The notes beneath the pieces were generated by a model. That model was not told the origin of the DNA, made no database searches, and was given only the letters and a program-made list of their open reading frames with translations. From positions 62,001 through 126,000 of the forward strand of contig SJRY01000260.1 of assembly GCA_011319805.1 (NCBI GenBank): a stretch of DNA of 64,000 nt. Reading direction: 5' to 3'. A program made the position numbers and the translations under genes. Positions 16,680 to 36,378 of this stretch are shown one piece after another. Position 1 is the stretch's first letter; each line of letters starts with the position of its first letter. The stretch comes from Macrocybe gigantea. Its lineage: Eukaryota; Basidiomycota; Agaricomycetes; Agaricales; Callistosporiaceae.

Positions 16680-17621
16680 CTAAGCCACAGTCAAGACCAA
16701 TGTGGCACCCAAGGCAAGTCCTGTCATCACAGCGGAGGTCACGCTGGCAAAGCCGGAAAGGGCAGCATTGAAGAGCTTGCCAGGAAGAGAGTCGCTACCA
16801 GATCTGAAATAAAAGAAATAGGCATCTTCCATCAGCTTTTGCATGCTTATCATCTAATCTACAACACTTACGCAGCACTCGTAGACGAACCAAAGGCAGT
16901 TCCGGTCGTGGTCGGCACGGCCGTGACAGTGTTCTGAGTGGGGTTTGAGAATCCTGTGTTGGCAGGGCTCGAGAACGCGGGGCTAGAGAAAGCAGGGCTC
17001 GAGAACGCGGGCGTGAACGTGGGGGAACTGCCACCATTTCCAGACCCGGGCTTCCAGCATTGCCTTTCTCCAGTGGCGCTACGACTGCAGGTATCTCCAG
17101 CGGCTGCATTTAAATTGGGAGACCAGAGTTCAACGGCGATATACAAGGGAATTTGGGGAGATGACGACTTACGACAACAGAAATCTTCGCCAGCGCAGGG
17201 AACGTAACCTTCATAGGAACAAGGATTGTTGTTGGCAACACAAGTTTTGCCGATAGTGCAGCAGCCTGGCTTGCCGCCCCAGACACCACAATATTTTCCG
17301 ACTGGACAGCATCCATCACCTATGAACGACGAGAAGAAAATGCAAGTAAGGCTCTACGATTCCGACACGTAGATATTCATTATTCGCACCGTCTGAGCAT
17401 GGCAAATAACCGGGATCACACGTCCCGGACTGACGGCTCAAGAGATTGCTAGAAAGTTCGGAGCGTCCAACGTTGGGCTTGCGTAGCAATGCCGCAATGA
17501 CGCCCTCCGACCTGATAGCAGACGGGGCCTCTCTTTTCTCGACGGGAACGCCGAACGCAGCGGCAGAGAGGGCTTGCGAGAGCACGAGGGGCGCGACGAA
17601 TAGCAGCTTCAAGTCAAGCAT
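16680..17621 (-). CDS. GPI-anchor-type cysteine-rich surface protein A
   Basis: Four exons (17621-17390, 17319-17173, 17103-16872, 16803-16680) give 244 aa. A signal peptide (MLDLKLLFVAPLVLSQALSA) and a pro-like segment with RSEGVIAALLRKPN precede a disulfide module whose spacing is CCPVGKYCG...GCCTIGKTC...YVPCAGEDFCC...GDTC...RQC. A Ser/Thr/Pro stalk follows with three PAFSS repeats. The C-terminus is a hydrophobic GPI-signal-like tail (VMTGLALGATLVLTVA). This suggests a wall- or membrane-anchored protein; the cysteine spacing recalls small chitin- or ligand-binding folds but binding is not shown. It is a paralogue of the gene at 23375-24330, with introns at matching phases. A TATA-like box is at 17731-17738, 110 bp upstream. 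Confidence 0.8.
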
Positions 17622-29992: not shown

Positions 29993-30250
29993 ATTCCGAG
30001 GAAGCAGATGTCCACCCTGAAATCTAAAGGCATCAGGACAGTAGCGACTAGGAATGCGTTCTAGGTGTCAAGATCGACTGAAGAGATGCACAGGGACATT
30101 TGCTGTCTAACACGGACATCTTAGATGGCAATGATGCATATGGACAGAACCTTCAAGTCCCATGCACAATAACGCAGTTATAAATGCCCGATGTTTGACG
30201 AACGACGTCTTGTTGCGTTTCTGTTGGATCAAGGCATGCCGTGATGCCAA

Positions 30251-30256
30251 CATTCA
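30251..30256 (+). repeat. Left target-site duplication CATTCA
   Basis: Six bases immediately outside the left TIR, repeated in the same orientation at 36373-36378. Confidence 0.85.
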
Positions 30257-30305
30257 TATGGAAAGCCGGAGCATCGTGCTCAGCTTCTGAGCTGTCACAG
30301 GTGCT
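30257..30305 (+). repeat. Left terminal inverted repeat (49 bp)
   Basis: Begins TATGGAAAGCCGGAGCATCG and is identical to the reverse complement of 36324-36372. It holds two overlapping palindromes: GAGCA-TCG-TGCTC (30269-30281) and GCTCAG-CTT-CTGAGC (30278-30292), which share GCTC and so cannot form together. Confidence 0.9.
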
Positions 30306-30522
30306 TCTTCGTAACATGTTGCCATATAGGACAGTATTATTAATTCCGGACCTCGGTCACCTTATGCAATACGAGTGTCTGACAGTAGGCAACGCGCCAT
30401 GAGAGCCAGCAAGGTCATCGGAAATGCCAAGTTCATAACATTCATGGACCAAATTTATTCATGCTATCGTACGTCCAACGTGATGCTAGCTCGAAATCCG
30501 ACGCGGACCCAAAATAAATTTC

Positions 30523-33319
30523 TCAGGATTCGTTAGCATGTGCCTCGATAATTCCGTCGTCGTCCAAGGAGAACAGAGATAAGTTGAAGGGGGGCCATTT
30601 GCAATATCGGTTGCATTGGTGATGTTTCTCGAACAGAGTGAGGCTTGCTTCCACATTGCCATCGCCGAACATATCCTTTCCCTCATTTAGTGATCTATTC
30701 GAGTTGCAATATCAGCATCAGTTCGACTTTCAATGTAATCGAGACCTACGGGTGGGTAAGGACCTGAGGATCTGTTAGTAATGGTGCGGCGCCTAAGGTC
30801 AATTTCACGATGAGTCAATATGGATAGATACGATGGTTGTGACCGTTGCGACGTGCCTTGATAGTCCGAAATGTAGGCCAGGCCACCTGTCTTGATGTAC
30901 TGGATATGTTGTGTGAATACTAGAAACTCAGCAATATCGAATCCTTCTTCCTCTGGCTCAATGGATGGTGTGAAGTCCATATTGTGGATGAACTTCGTGA
31001 ACTCCTCCTTTGTACATGGAATCCTCTCCTCCAATAGGTACGCTCCGACGGCAGTGCCCGCTGATGGAGCAGAATTGTGGCTTCGCAAGGCATGAACCAA
31101 TGCCAGGCCCGCATGAACAAAGCGCAAGCGGGGAATGTCGAAGGGCGGACTGCTCGGAGAGCGCTGGATGCAATGGTCAATGTATTCATACGACATAGTC
31201 AAAAGCGACTTGGCCCAGTACAAAACATTGGCCTCACGATAGAGCTTTGGAAGTTCATGGCCAAAGCTGTAGCGGGAAATCTTGAGCTTTCTCGAACCGT
31301 GGGAGGGACCATTGTCTGATGGCTTGAAAAACATACGCTTGACGACCACATCTTGACGTGGCACCGTGCCAAGACCAAAGGTTGCCACAGGAGATAGCAT
31401 GAGTGACCCTGGATGGGCTGTCTTGAAGCCCCCAATTCCAATGAGCGACTCCAAGGACATGTCGGCTTCCAACCGTCCATGGTATCCACCAGTATTCAGT
31501 TCCAGACAATGTTTCTGGCGATCCCGGAGAATTATTTCCACTGACCGGGTTGGAATGGGGTGAAATACAATGTTCTCATGTTTCTGTGCCATGACTAATT
31601 TGGAATTTCAGAGAGAAACAGTTACGACAAATGACCAACATACGTTTCTGGACATCCAGTGATGCCTGACCCCCAAATTGAAGGGCTTCTTTCAGCTCCT
31701 CCCGGTTTGGTGAAGAGAATGGAACCAAGGTTGGGGCACACACGGAGGATTTACGAGGGGGTGAATCGGCTCCTGTGCTTGATATGCTGCGGCTTTGAGT
31801 GTGAGTGCGTTTCATGCGGCTGCTATTTGATGGCTCAGGCCCTGGCTTGGGTGCGCAAGCAGAGGGAGAAGGCTCGGCAATGGCAGGGAGCGGCGAAGAA
31901 AAGGAAGCCACATCTGAAAACCCAGAATGGCTGAGTTGTGTTGGCGTCCGTGTCCGCATGCGAGAGGTCAAGGATGCCACTGCCTCCGGTGTGAAAGCTC
32001 CTGACTTATTATCTGTGAAAGGGATAGACGGTGGTCGTCGCTCCGCTTTATTGCCAAGGTCACTATCGGAGTCGCCACACTCGAGGGATTCCGCATGCTG
32101 TTCGTAATCAAGCCATTGACTCTCCGGAACAACGACTGACAGTGAGAACTGCTTTGTCTTGAAGATTGGTACCTTTGGATTCTTCCGGTTTGGATGGAGG
32201 CACTCGTTGTAAAAGTATGGACGCGAACGGGAATATGAAGAGAGATCGACCCAAGATGAGTCGCGAACCACCAAATCTCTGACTTGCCACTGAAACGAAG
32301 GGCAAAATGCGATGATCTTGGGTACAATGGTGTCGATAGCGATTTTGATAAGACCAGGAGCGTCGATCAATGCATCGACGTCCTTGATGCCTTCGCAGAT
32401 ATTCTGTAATGTGATTGTTGGTTAGGCATTAAGTGTCGACGATGTGTGAAGCTACTTACTCCAAAGGGAATGCCGTGGCCAGTGCGTCCACCTCTTCTTG
32501 CCCTTCCCTCGTGAAGTGCAGATATCTGAAGAGATATTGTTTCTGCCAAGATGGCAGTCTGAGAGAACCTGGCCCAGCGTTCACGCTCTGAATGATAGGA
32601 GGCATGATTGCGCGAGTAACCCATGGCCAATGATGGATGTGTGTTATTGGCCGATGGTAAAGCAACGTCAGGCCCTTGCGTATGTCTCTGCAAATGCTGA
32701 TGTGTGCCCGGCACTGGTATTCCACGTGCTGGGTTCGGAAACGCCATGACTGGTGGAGGGTGAATGGCAGCTTCAAGACGACATGTTAGTTGAATGAGAT
32801 TTACATAGTCGCTTGAGAATAAGACATACAGCCTCGTTGACTCGCATTGACGGAAAAGCGAATGGCCTGGGCATCAGGAAGAGGCCAGGCATCTGTGGAC
32901 GGTTGGCTGCCTGATCGGTGAGGAGAGGCTCGTTAGCAGCAAAATTCAATCCCAATTGAAAGACGGCTGACCAGAGGCCTGCGTTGAAACCGCCGTGCCC
33001 TGAAACTTAGGATTTTGTGTGTCCGGAACCTGTGCTGAGATGGCCGTTCGTGTAGCTAAGAGTACATTGTGGCGTCAATACTGACACTACCAAGAAAGGC
33101 ATGACAGGACTTACCCGTTGGACGTGCAGTAGTTGCGAGGCTTCGCTTATAGTGCGAACAGCACTTAGCACAGACGAACTTTCCTCGCTTTTGGGGATCG
33201 ATGTGGGCAATGTAAAAGCAAGGCTCGCCTTTGCGTATCAGCACGGCACAGGCACTACGCTCGCAAGTACGATCGTACTTGGCATAGGCATCTTCGGTAA
33301 ATTGAGTGGCAAGCTCCAT
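30523..33319 (-). CDS. Alpha-type (atypical) protein kinase within the transposon
   Basis: Eight exons (33319-33115, 33055-32972, 32910-32830, 32770-32460, 32403-31644, 31594-30857, 30792-30750, 30694-30523) join in frame to 797 aa. The N-terminus has a Cys-rich patch (CERSACA, CAKCCSHYKR) as in other basidiomycete alpha-kinases; the middle is disordered, Ser/Pro-rich. The catalytic domain (about 485-797) shows GIGGFKTAHPG, VVVKRMFF with the presumed ATP-binding lysine, AYLLEERI, AEFLVFTQHIQYIKTGGLAY, the catalytic-loop-type ISDYQG, LLTDPQVLTH, DMFGDGNV and the zinc-binding HHQCNRYCKW. Every hallmark of the alpha-kinase fold is present, so activity is likely. Intron 30793-30856 is GC-AG (CAAG|gcacgt). 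A longer start at 33385 is possible. Kinase target unknown. Confidence 0.85.
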
Positions 33320-34314
33320 GTCGATGTGGAAATTGACCTCGAGACTCAAGTGGTTCGGGCTTATATACTGTTCGCAATGACTCAATGCCTAATGCCTCTT
33401 CACTCTGGACTTGAGATAATTACCAAGTCGTTCCACTGGCATGAGATAGGATGCATGTCGATAGAGGAGACCATGAGATGGAGCGATGTCGTGAATCCTT
33501 TTTCGAACTGCCAGCATGGTAGAGCTTGAGCGATGCGCAATGCACATTACACGTTGTGATTCGTGAATCGTGATTCTGGGGACAGGAGTTCTGTTGGGAA
33601 CGCCTTGGGGATTCACTCCGAGTCGTCAAAATGGTGTTCTAAACTCCCAGGGGCCTATGTGTTTGTGCTTACTGAAGTTCGTTCGGAGATTCTGGGCCCT
33701 CCTTTCCATGCAGATCGCAATTCCGCCATGCAGCAGGAAAAAGCGAGCGCGGAGACACTGACATGTTCATGAGTCATTGAGATGTTCTGGGCTCTCTTTC
33801 GCCTACACGTTGATATGACACGTTGCAAATTCGTGATTCAAGACAAGAAGGAGTTGAGGATTCACTGGTGAAGGATTATTCTCAAGTCCCGGTCGCTGAC
33901 ACGCTTGCAATTCAAACGCTTCGTCGATTCCTTCCGGATGTTCTGGGCTCTCTCAAACTCCACGTTGACGTATCGTGCAATGTGTCATCCTCGCCATGCA
34001 TCTCCACTTCGACCATGCAGACACAGAATCTGTTGGCCAAGCCTTTTCACCTTATCGTTATGTCAATTTGACATAAAGATAGCAGCATAGTCTTTGTTCC
34101 TTTTCTACCCAATGACCCAATTTTGCCGGCGTCTGTCTGGGCAGAGGGAATGTGTGCGGTACGTCGCGTTGCGTCTCATTCTTCCTGCTCTTGTAATTCA
34201 AATATTTTAATACAGGACAGCTCAAGGTCGTGTCTCACTACTGCCTCGTACCTTACCCCGCCAGAGTCTGCCTGTTTTGCCGCTTCCTCAAATTCTGTCC
34301 AGTCTTGCCCAACC
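33320..34314. other. Divergent promoter region of the transposon, with repeated motifs
   Basis: About 1 kb between the kinase and transposase starts. The 17-mer GATGTTCTGGGCTCTCT occurs at 33781-33797 and 33938-33954, each followed 23-25 bp later by CACGTTGA, and a degenerate third copy (GATTCTGGGCCCTCC) begins at 33688. Other shared words include GGATTCACT and CCATGCA. I see no coding sequence. The arrangement suggests shared control elements or internal transposase-binding sites; this is inference. Confidence 0.5.
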
Positions 34315-36157
34315 ATGCCGAACCAGTGGAAGCCTACGCGTGCGTCGTCGATAGTTGTTCCATCGACTCATTCTGACATCCAATTTGACCCATACCTTAG
34401 CACCCTTGGAAGTGATTACGCCCCACATTCGTCGTCTATGGAAAGCTCGACTTACCGACAAAGAAATGGTCGCTGAGCTGCAGAAGCATATCGATACCAG
34501 CAAATACGGAATCGGGTAATTGCGCCATCACCTCTGCACCACTGATTATATTCCAACTGTCTTACGATGCTTCTAGGTTGACGAAGTTTACCGCAATCAG
34601 GAAGGCCATGGGCCTCCATCGTGCTCGCCAACAAGGCCATACCGTGGAGACGATTCGCGATGCCATGACTGACTTGCGAGAAATCTATCCGAACGCAGGG
34701 GCGCGTGAAATGGTAAGTTTGCTGTTTCATGAAAAGAATATGAGTGTTCCAAGGTATCTATCGTCCCAATATCATATCAATTCAGATATGTGTTACTGAC
34801 TCTGGTTTCAGACGAGTTGTCCGAGAATATTTCGTGCAATATGAAGCCCATCTTGTTCGCCAGAGAAAAGCAGGTCGTCTTCAACGGCGCCGTTTCTGGG
34901 CTGCTGGGGTCAACGATATCTGGGCGGTGGACCAACACGACAAATGGCTTCGTTTTGGCCTCGGTCTACATACCTGCGTCGAGCCCTTTTCGGGGAAGAT
35001 CCTGTGGATTCGTGTATGGCATTCTAACCGAAATCCACAGTTAATTTTAAGCTACTACCTCGATAAGGTCAAGGATCTCGGGTGTGAGTGAATTGTCCTT
35101 GCTCACGTCATGTCTAATATCGACACTTGTTCACTCCGACAGTCATACCACTTGTAACCCAGAGCGATCCTGGGTCCGAAAACTTTGGCATCGCAAACGC
35201 GCAAACCATGCTGCGTCAAATTCACGATCCGTCGCTGGCGGGAACCCTTCAACACCGCTGGATGCGAGACAAAAAGAATGTCAAGCCTGAGATCGTATGG
35301 GCCCAGCTTCGACGTCGTTTCACTCCAGGCTTTGAAAGGATACTGGATCATGGCATCAATATGGGTTTATATGATCCTAACAATACTCTACAAAGGTAAG
35401 TGTAAATCCTAGTCTTGCACGAAGAATACATTCAAACCATTTCGTTCTAGAATGATATTCCTTTGGCTCTTCGTCCCCTGGCTTCAAGAAGAGCTGAATT
35501 CCTATCAAGATCGTGTTAACAACACGCCAAAACGGAGAGATAGAAACAAGATTCTTCCTCATGGCCGGTCGGAACTGATTTTCGACAGCGCGGAAGATTA
35601 TGGAGCATTGGATTTTAAGGTGTGTGGAGCATTTATCTATGCACGACATATTTGAAATCAATTAAATTTAGGTCGACGTCGATCCCAATGCCGTCATGCA
35701 CGTCCATGGTCAATATATCAATGATTCGCACCCGGTCTTCGACCTTATCCCAGGCCCCCTTGCTCAGCATTTGGAAGGATGTTACCAGGAAATGGGACGT
35801 CCATTGGTCACGCGCGACAACGTGTGGCGTGTTTACAATGAAGTTCTTAGTCTGGTCCAGGAGCGGGCATCAGCATCGCGTGCTTTTTCGCGCTCTCTAT
35901 CCGCTGCACTAGACACTGTCCCGGATCCAGATTTAGACGCGCTGCCACTCCTTCACAACCAGATCGAACTTCAAACTAACTTGGAGTACTATTATATGGG
36001 TGGCGTTCGTTCTGGTCTTGGATTGGATCCGGAACACTTTCAGAAATTAGACGAGTTGGATAACGAAGATGAGCCTGCAATTGTCGAGGTACCTGCTCAT
36101 CTTGTAGTCGCAGAGTTCTCTGATGACTCTGACACTGATAATGTCGATGACTTTTGA
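34315..36157 (+). CDS. Integrase-fold DDE transposase
   Basis: Seven exons (34315-34339, 34401-34515, 34577-34753, 34812-35083, 35143-35395, 35451-35619, 35672-36157) join in frame to 498 aa, no stop or frameshift. Residues 9-75 look like a helix-turn-helix DNA-binding region (RLWKARLTDKEMVAELQKHI, KAMGLHRARQQGHT). The catalytic domain begins near 135: GVNDIWAVDQHDKW holds the first Asp (about D146), VTQSDPGSENFG the second (about D205), and NVKPEIVWAQLRRR the Glu (about E246), a D-D(40)E arrangement of retroviral-integrase type. A C-terminal acidic tail (EFSDDSDTDNVDDF) follows. Such transposases cut both ends of their element and reinsert it. All introns are GT-AG, 52-61 nt. It is transcribed away from the kinase and its stop lies 167 bp from the right TIR. 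Confidence 0.85.
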
Positions 36158-36323
36158 TATGTACTACTTATCATCATAACATCAGTTGTATTCCAATCTA
36201 GAGTCAATGGCTTTGGAGGCCTATGGCATTGGTGATCAGTGCGACTCTCATCGAGGCGAAACATTAATGTGTTCGGGGTCTATGCTGAATAATAGTGCCT
36301 TATATAGTTAAGCGTTATTAATT

Positions 36324-36372
36324 AGCACCTGTGACAGCTCAGAAGCTGAGCACGATGCTCCGGCTTTCCATA
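36324..36372 (-). repeat. Right terminal inverted repeat (49 bp)
   Basis: Mirror image of 30257-30305 with no mismatch, followed directly by the second CATTCA. Confidence 0.9.
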
Positions 36373-36378
36373 CATTCA
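36373..36378 (+). repeat. Right target-site duplication CATTCA
   Basis: Direct copy of 30251-30256. No other base outside the TIRs matches beyond these six, so the duplication length is six. Confidence 0.85.

What the first reader, a model, noticed from the sequence alone, without database searches (positions are those of the whole stretch)
30257..36372. A complete DNA transposon that carries an intact alpha-type protein kinase next to its transposase
Seen: 49-bp identical TIRs, perfect 6-bp CATTCA duplication, and exactly two genes inside, transcribed divergently. One is an integrase-fold DDE transposase without any break. The other is an 797-aa alpha-kinase with the full catalytic and zinc-binding core. 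Known: alpha-kinases are expanded in some basidiomycetes, and most cut-and-paste elements carry only a transposase. Inference: the kinase is a stable passenger that may regulate transposition (for example by phosphorylating the transposase's acidic tail), counter host defence, or be an adaptive cargo. It may explain how such kinases spread.
Basis: partly seen in the sequence, partly recalled or inferred. Interest (0 to 1): 0.88.

Follow-up and report, generated by a model that had tools for sequence, protein, structure and literature searches.

The report
Mushroom transposon with built-in alpha-kinase
This is a recently active cut-and-paste transposon of the IS3EU superfamily, apparently in a mushroom-type fungus, and the unusual protein kinase beside its transposase looks not like stray cargo but like a partner gene that has travelled and evolved with the transposase for a long time.

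Summary
In detail: a 6,116-bp element with 49-bp identical TIRs (TATGG..CCATA), a 6-bp TSD, a 498-aa DDE transposase and a divergent 797-aa alpha-kinase. Two further copies have their own 6-bp TSDs, and other contigs carry clean empty sites for the window copy and the C253 copy, so it moved recently. Every alpha-kinase locus that the searches found in this genome (11 of 11, five families) lies beside an IS3EU-type transposase; 9 of 11 have both ends and a TSD, the other two are cut by contig ends. In 21 kinase/transposase pairs the two gene trees share 16 of 18 splits (shuffled labels: mean 0.35, maximum 5). So the kinase is most simply a co-inherited core gene of this IS3EU lineage. That IS3EU elements carry transposase and alpha-kinase in opposite orientation is already in print for TET-bearing families of rusts and a truffle (PMC12730594); here no TET gene was recognised. 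The kinase's substrate is unknown; a conserved S/T in the transposase's acidic tail is a candidate, but also fits host CK2. New member of a known kind, with new evidence that the kinase is core.

The parts
30251..30256 (.). target site duplication, left copy (CATTCA)
   Evidence: single copy at the empty site on C17 (L041)
30257..30305 (+). left terminal inverted repeat, 49 bp, TATGG...
30523..33319 (-). alpha-kinase gene, 797 aa; exons 33319-33115, 33055-32972, 32910-32830, 32770-32460, 32403-31644, 31594-30857, 30792-30750, 30694-30523
   Evidence: Pfam PF02816; exon 2 (33055-32972) is the least certain exon
33140..33265 (-). approximate coding region of the N-terminal cysteine-rich, zinc-like domain of the kinase protein (C19, C24, C50, C53)
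   Evidence: alignment; model of homologue P0003; also seen in family B (E 3e-11) and weakly in D (E 0.002)
30793..30856 (-). GC-AG intron inside the kinase catalytic region
   Evidence: only solution found between SDYQ and LLTDPQ
30523..31480 (-). approximate region coding for the alpha-kinase catalytic domain (three exons)
34315..36157 (+). DDE transposase gene, 498 aa; exons 34315-34339, 34401-34515, 34577-34753, 34812-35083, 35143-35395, 35451-35619, 35672-36157; D146, D205, E246 (DD40E)
   Evidence: fold of homologue P0081
36116..36127 (+). F-S-D-D, the conserved motif in the acidic C-terminal tail of the transposase
36324..36372 (-). right terminal inverted repeat, 49 bp, ...CCATA
36373..36378 (.). 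target site duplication, right copy (CATTCA)

Best explanation
The stretch is a complete, recently inserted DNA transposon of the IS3EU kind with two genes. SHOWN: TIRs, 6-bp TSD, empty sites, further copies, an integrase-type DDE transposase and an alpha-kinase whose tree follows that of the transposase in elements of Boletales and Mycena. INFERRED: the transposase cuts the element out and pastes it with a 6-bp stagger; the kinase is a second, trans-acting element gene kept because it raises the element's own success. The most likely mechanism (about 0.35) is that it phosphorylates the transposase, perhaps the conserved S/T of the F-[S/T]-acidic tail motif, and so tunes its activity, nuclear handling or turnover. 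Next (about 0.3) is a host chromatin or silencing factor. The confidence given is for identity plus core, co-inherited status, not for the substrate.
For: TIR/TSD; 3 family-A copies with TSDs CATTCA, AAGAAT, TGTTTG; empty sites on C17 and C252; termini and TSD match published fungal IS3EU (TAYGG..CCRTA, 6 bp; PMC12730594). 11 of 11 kinase loci found are next to an IS3EU-type transposase. Kinase and transposase distances r = 0.905 in 22 pairs; in Suillus alone (11 pairs) 0.895, while the best of the 35 other within-species pairings gives 0.539. 16 of 18 tree splits shared. Catalytic residues near-invariant. The kinase's N-terminal cysteine-rich domain recurs in family B and weakly in D, its middle domain in C and D.
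Against: No expression, enzymatic or transposition data. The tail motif also fits a CK2 consensus (recalled), and 54 of 165 acidic tails do not match the pattern. An IS3EU-type element without a mentioned kinase is described (Styx), so the kinase is not needed for IS3EU transposition in general. Gene order differs among the families here (divergent A, convergent B, tandem C, D, E), which would also fit separate captures, although the trees speak against that. One kinase split with support 0.927 is not in the transposase tree. Family E, the most divergent, was left out of the trees. Pairs were matched on organism and contig length, three of them on contigs over 2 Mb.
Confidence: 0.87

Rival explanations
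1. The kinase is a core IS3EU gene but acts on the host's silencing machinery (chromatin or DNA-methylation factors), as proposed for transposon TET genes, rather than on the transposase.
For: Copies decay at CpG: 259 of 280 differences of the C2 copy are C>T or G>A, 180 of the 259 at CpG; 14 of 14 differences between the window and C253 copies are at CpG, so the family appears to be a methylation target. TET+ IS3EU families carry a TET gene between the two genes (PMC12730594).
Against: No substrate data; the N-terminal cysteine-rich domain has no identified function.
Confidence: 0.3
2. The kinase acts like its characterised relatives eEF2K or myosin heavy chain kinase: it phosphorylates a cytoplasmic host protein (translation, stress, cytoskeleton) and so creates a cell state that favours transposition.
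For: Catalytic domain closest in fold to ChaK/TRPM7, MHCK A and eEF2K.
Against: A similar fold does not give the substrate; the matches cover the catalytic part, and the other parts were barely tested.
Confidence: 0.15
3. The kinase is adaptive cargo for the fungus, carried because it benefits the host.
For: Alpha-kinases are reported as expanded or enriched families in rust genomes (PMC4469406; PMC5295586).
Against: The kinase tree follows the transposase and not the species; degenerating copies lose the kinase frame too (C2: 5 stop codons; C253: one, in the least certain exon); no kinase was found away from an IS3EU-type transposase in this genome (lower bounds).
Confidence: 0.06
4. A single recent capture of a host kinase by one element.
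For: None found.
Against: Five families in one genome, pairs in Suillus, Pisolithus, Chiua, Boletus and Mycena, congruent trees.
Confidence: 0.01

Closest known systems
[quoted passage not shown] passages and the Discussion, first part, read)
   Same: 6-bp TSD, TIRs over 30 bp ending TAYGG..CCRTA, transposase and alpha-kinase in opposite orientation
   Different: no TET/JBP gene was recognised between them here (no TET profile was run); other families in this genome have the two genes convergent (B) or in tandem (C, D, E)
Styx of Zymoseptoria tritici (PMC10853768, passages read)
   Same: IS3EU-type DDD/E transposase; the two TSDs quoted in a passage are 6 bp (TGTGAT, CATAAG)
   Different: its other three genes are described with GATA, CCHC and DUF3577 domains; no alpha-kinase is mentioned in the passages
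Alpha-kinases: TRPM7/ChaK, Dictyostelium MHCK A, eEF2K
   Different: about 15-21% identity over aligned residues; an N-terminal part with a cysteine-rich zinc-like domain and a middle domain of unknown function
TET-bearing fungal transposons of other superfamilies (Kyakuja, Plavaka and others; PMC12730594)
   Same: a DNA transposon with an enzyme besides its transposase
   Different: TET genes are reported as exchanged between transposon superfamilies, whereas the kinase here follows its transposase

Membership tests
IS3EU superfamily | TSD usually 6 bp (PMC10045372) | tested here: met
   CATTCA, AAGAAT, TGTTTG; GAAATC, GAACAG, GTAGCA, GCAAAC; CAATCG if one terminal base has changed. Family E shows only 5 bp (CCATT).
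IS3EU superfamily | Termini TA..TA; in TET+ fungal families TAYGG..CCRTA with TIRs over 30 bp | tested here: met
   Family A TATGG..CCATA, 49 bp
IS3EU superfamily | Integrase-type DDE transposase without an HHCC motif before the core | tested here: met
IS3EU superfamily | Transposase groups with named IS3EU transposases in a tree | not tested
IS3EU families with alpha-kinase | Alpha-kinase gene in the element, opposite in orientation to the transposase | tested here: met
   for the window; families C, D, E in this genome have both genes in the same direction
TET+ IS3EU | TET/JBP gene between transposase and kinase | tested here: inconclusive
   About 1 kb lies between the two start codons, with no ORF over 150 aa listed there; no TET profile was run
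Alpha-kinase family (PF02816) | Profile match above the curated cut-off | tested here: met
   41 bits against cut-off 21.3 (793-aa model)
Alpha-kinase family (PF02816) | Catalytic and zinc-site residues present | tested here: met
   present in the window protein and near-invariant in 57 homologues
Alpha-kinase family (PF02816) | Protein kinase activity | not testable with these tools
   needs a biochemical assay

The most novel reading that the evidence does not exclude
A self-regulated two-protein transposition system: the alpha-kinase is a dedicated partner that phosphorylates the S/T of the conserved F-[S/T]-acidic tail motif of its own transposase, so that cut-and-paste transposition in this fungal lineage is switched by an element-encoded kinase; and much of the alpha-kinase 'expansion' counted as host genes in basidiomycetes is IS3EU content.
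Probability: 0.2. Interest if true: 0.85.

Novelty: new member of a known kind. Interest (0 to 1): 0.52.

Why it matters
If the kinase is a core gene of fungal IS3EU elements, (1) it makes testable whether a eukaryotic cut-and-paste transposon controls itself by phosphorylation; (2) it contrasts with TET genes, which are reported to pass between transposon superfamilies (PMC12730594); (3) alpha-kinase enrichment reported for wheat rusts (PMC5295586 Table 3, ratio 2.34, which the authors discuss under adaptation of gene regulation and host interaction) may be partly transposon content, which would affect comparative-genomics claims.

Tried and rejected
Single-copy capture: rejected by further copies and families. 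Selection from dN/dS of window versus C2 copy: not informative, because the C2 copy is decaying at CpG (kinase ratio 0.80, transposase 0.40, with 5 and 7 stop codons). First kinase model of 793 aa replaced by the 797-aa model after the homologue alignment. C3 and C111: only fragments of an A-like transposase C-terminus; no TIR pair and no kinase match in the 10 kb read of each. Viral, metagenome and bacterial collections were not searched because the host is a fungus. Matches outside the kinase domain were too weak to name the middle domain (FHOD1 E 0.04; barely tests that part). Host species: not determined; homologues point to Agaricomycetes near Boletales, an inference only. Empty site of the C2 copy: one flank matches C10 and C244 only in part, left open. 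In print: the paper searches were made; in their listings and the passages read, only PMC12730594 states the kinase-IS3EU association, and I saw no kinase/transposase tree comparison; supplements could not be read.
Full report

MOBILITY. Three family-A copies with both ends exist: the window, C253 (14 differences in 6,116) and C2 (95-96% identical, split by two insertions). Their duplications differ: CATTCA, AAGAAT, TGTTTG. Contig C17 carries the window's site empty with one CATTCA; 487 of 487 bases of the left flank and 897 of 900 of the right flank are identical. C252 carries the C253 site empty with one AAGAAT. Most simply these contigs are the other haplotype (inferred). The C2 flank gave no clear empty site. 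So at least two insertions look polymorphic and recent.

ALL KINASE LOCI FOUND. The Pfam search found seven places. The protein search added the three family-A copies, and C292 is added because its alignment to C63 covers the kinase: 11 loci. An IS3EU-type transposase lies by each; for family E (C63, C293, C292) that match is weak (E 1.1e-5, 25% identity). Both ends and a duplication were found for 9 of 11: A at three places, B at C37 (GAAATC) and C244 (GAACAG), C at C317 (GTAGCA) and C205 (GCAAAC), D at C187 (CAATCG, if one terminal base has changed), E at C63 (TACGG..CCGTA ends, 5-bp CCATT). C293 and C292 are cut by contig ends and may not be independent. Orientation varies: divergent in A, convergent in B, tandem in C, D and E. 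Genome searches are exon by exon and give lower bounds, so a divergent host kinase could be missed.

CO-INHERITANCE. Four pairs have consecutive locus tags (Chiua virens 7918/7919, Suillus fuscotomentosus 1191263/1191262, S. luteus 15633/15632, S. lakei 1912656/1912657) and Boletus reticuloceps has 8963/8961. With five pairs from this genome (A, B, C twice, D; family E left out as too divergent; B, C and D are chains of aligned pieces) the kinase and transposase distances correlate at r = 0.905 (22 pairs). Within Suillus alone r = 0.895 (11 pairs), and the best of the 35 other within-species pairings gives 0.539. Over all 4,320 within-species pairings none other reached the observed value (next 0.9048). 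FastTree trees of 21 pairs (one of two near-identical C copies dropped) share 16 of 18 splits; 2,000 label shuffles average 0.35 and never exceed 5. Against this, one kinase split with support 0.927 is absent from the transposase tree. The shuffles do not allow for relatedness of the elements; the within-species swaps partly do. Besides the catalytic part, the cysteine-rich N-terminal domain is seen in B (E 3e-11) and weakly in D (E 0.002), the middle domain in C (E about 1e-11 to 2e-12) and D (E 1e-5). This is what a core gene looks like. By contrast TET genes are reported to pass between superfamilies (PMC12730594, section 4.1 read).

DECAY. Between the window and C253 copies 14 of 14 differences are CpG against TpG or CpA: in 11 the window keeps the CpG, in 3 C253 does; one makes a stop in the kinase of C253 (R71*, in the least certain exon). 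In C2, 259 of 280 differences are C>T or G>A, 180 of the 259 at CpG. This suggests methylation-driven mutation of these elements.

MECHANISM. The transposase tail is acidic and poorly conserved except for a short motif. Of 216 transposases from two searches, 165 have an acidic last 45 residues; 111 of these 165 hold [FWY]-[ST]-[DESN]-[DES], against 5.4% of shuffled tails, and 54 do not. Where F-x-[DESN]-[DE] occurs, x is S or T in 95 of 106 (no separate control was made for that share). In this genome family B has EFTEDE, C ends DFTDSE and D ends EFSDEE. S and T exchanging at one place is what a phosphorylation site would show, but the site also fits the CK2 consensus (recalled), so it does not prove that this kinase uses it. 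Kinase-less relatives were not available as a control. I commit to the transposase as the most likely substrate at about 0.35, a silencing factor at about 0.3.

COMPARISON. IS3EU elements have TA..TA termini and usually 6-bp TSDs (PMC10045372, passages); [quoted passage not shown] The window element fits this without a recognised TET gene. Membership by a tree against Repbase families could not be tested. The alpha-kinase family is called highly expanded in rusts in PMC4469406 (one passage) and is listed in PMC5295586 among families enriched in wheat rusts against eight other basidiomycetes (ratio 2.34, Q 0.035; passages). It is worth counting how many of those are IS3EU genes.

VERDICT. A real, recently active IS3EU-type transposon with an alpha-kinase that behaves as a core gene.

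Noticed in passing
window 30243-30256 against L041 about 1318-1500: The empty site on C17 has about 177 bp more than the window, 8 bp from the insertion point: a small insertion there or a deletion beside the element here.
   Followed up: partly
window element against L014, L015 and L016: Copies differ almost only by CpG transitions (14 of 14; 259 of 280 C>T or G>A, 180 of the 259 at CpG), suggesting methylated, mutating elements.
   Followed up: yes
window 36116-36127 and transposase tails P0080-P0295: Conserved F-[S/T]-acidic motif in otherwise variable acidic transposase tails, sometimes doubled (P0206, P0231, P0262).
   Followed up: partly
C205 12300-16650 (L020, L028): A further insertion inside a family-C element has ORFs that look like a BED-finger/hAT transposase (by eye, not searched).
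   Followed up: no
C37 17980-22180 (L017, L018) and C187 17750-20935 (L022, L025): Long stretches inside family B and D elements besides the two genes, with unidentified ORFs (up to 276 and 175 aa); possibly further cargo.
   Followed up: no
C3 142096-142224 (L036), C111 43429-43615 (L037): Short remnants of a family-A-like transposase C-terminus without TIR pair or kinase match nearby.
   Followed up: partly
window 30257-30305: The TIR contains two small palindromes (GAGCA-TCG-TGCTC and CAGCT-TCTG-AGCTG); as a single strand it folds somewhat better than shuffles (z -2.04, 7 of 200 shuffles at least as good).
   Followed up: no
P0003 residues 188-321: The conserved middle domain of the kinase protein is predicted with high confidence but got only weak matches (FHOD1, ubiquitin-like domains); it was not folded and searched alone.
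   Followed up: no
window 16965-17011: The only tandem repeat reported in the window: 15-bp unit, 3.1 copies.
   Followed up: no
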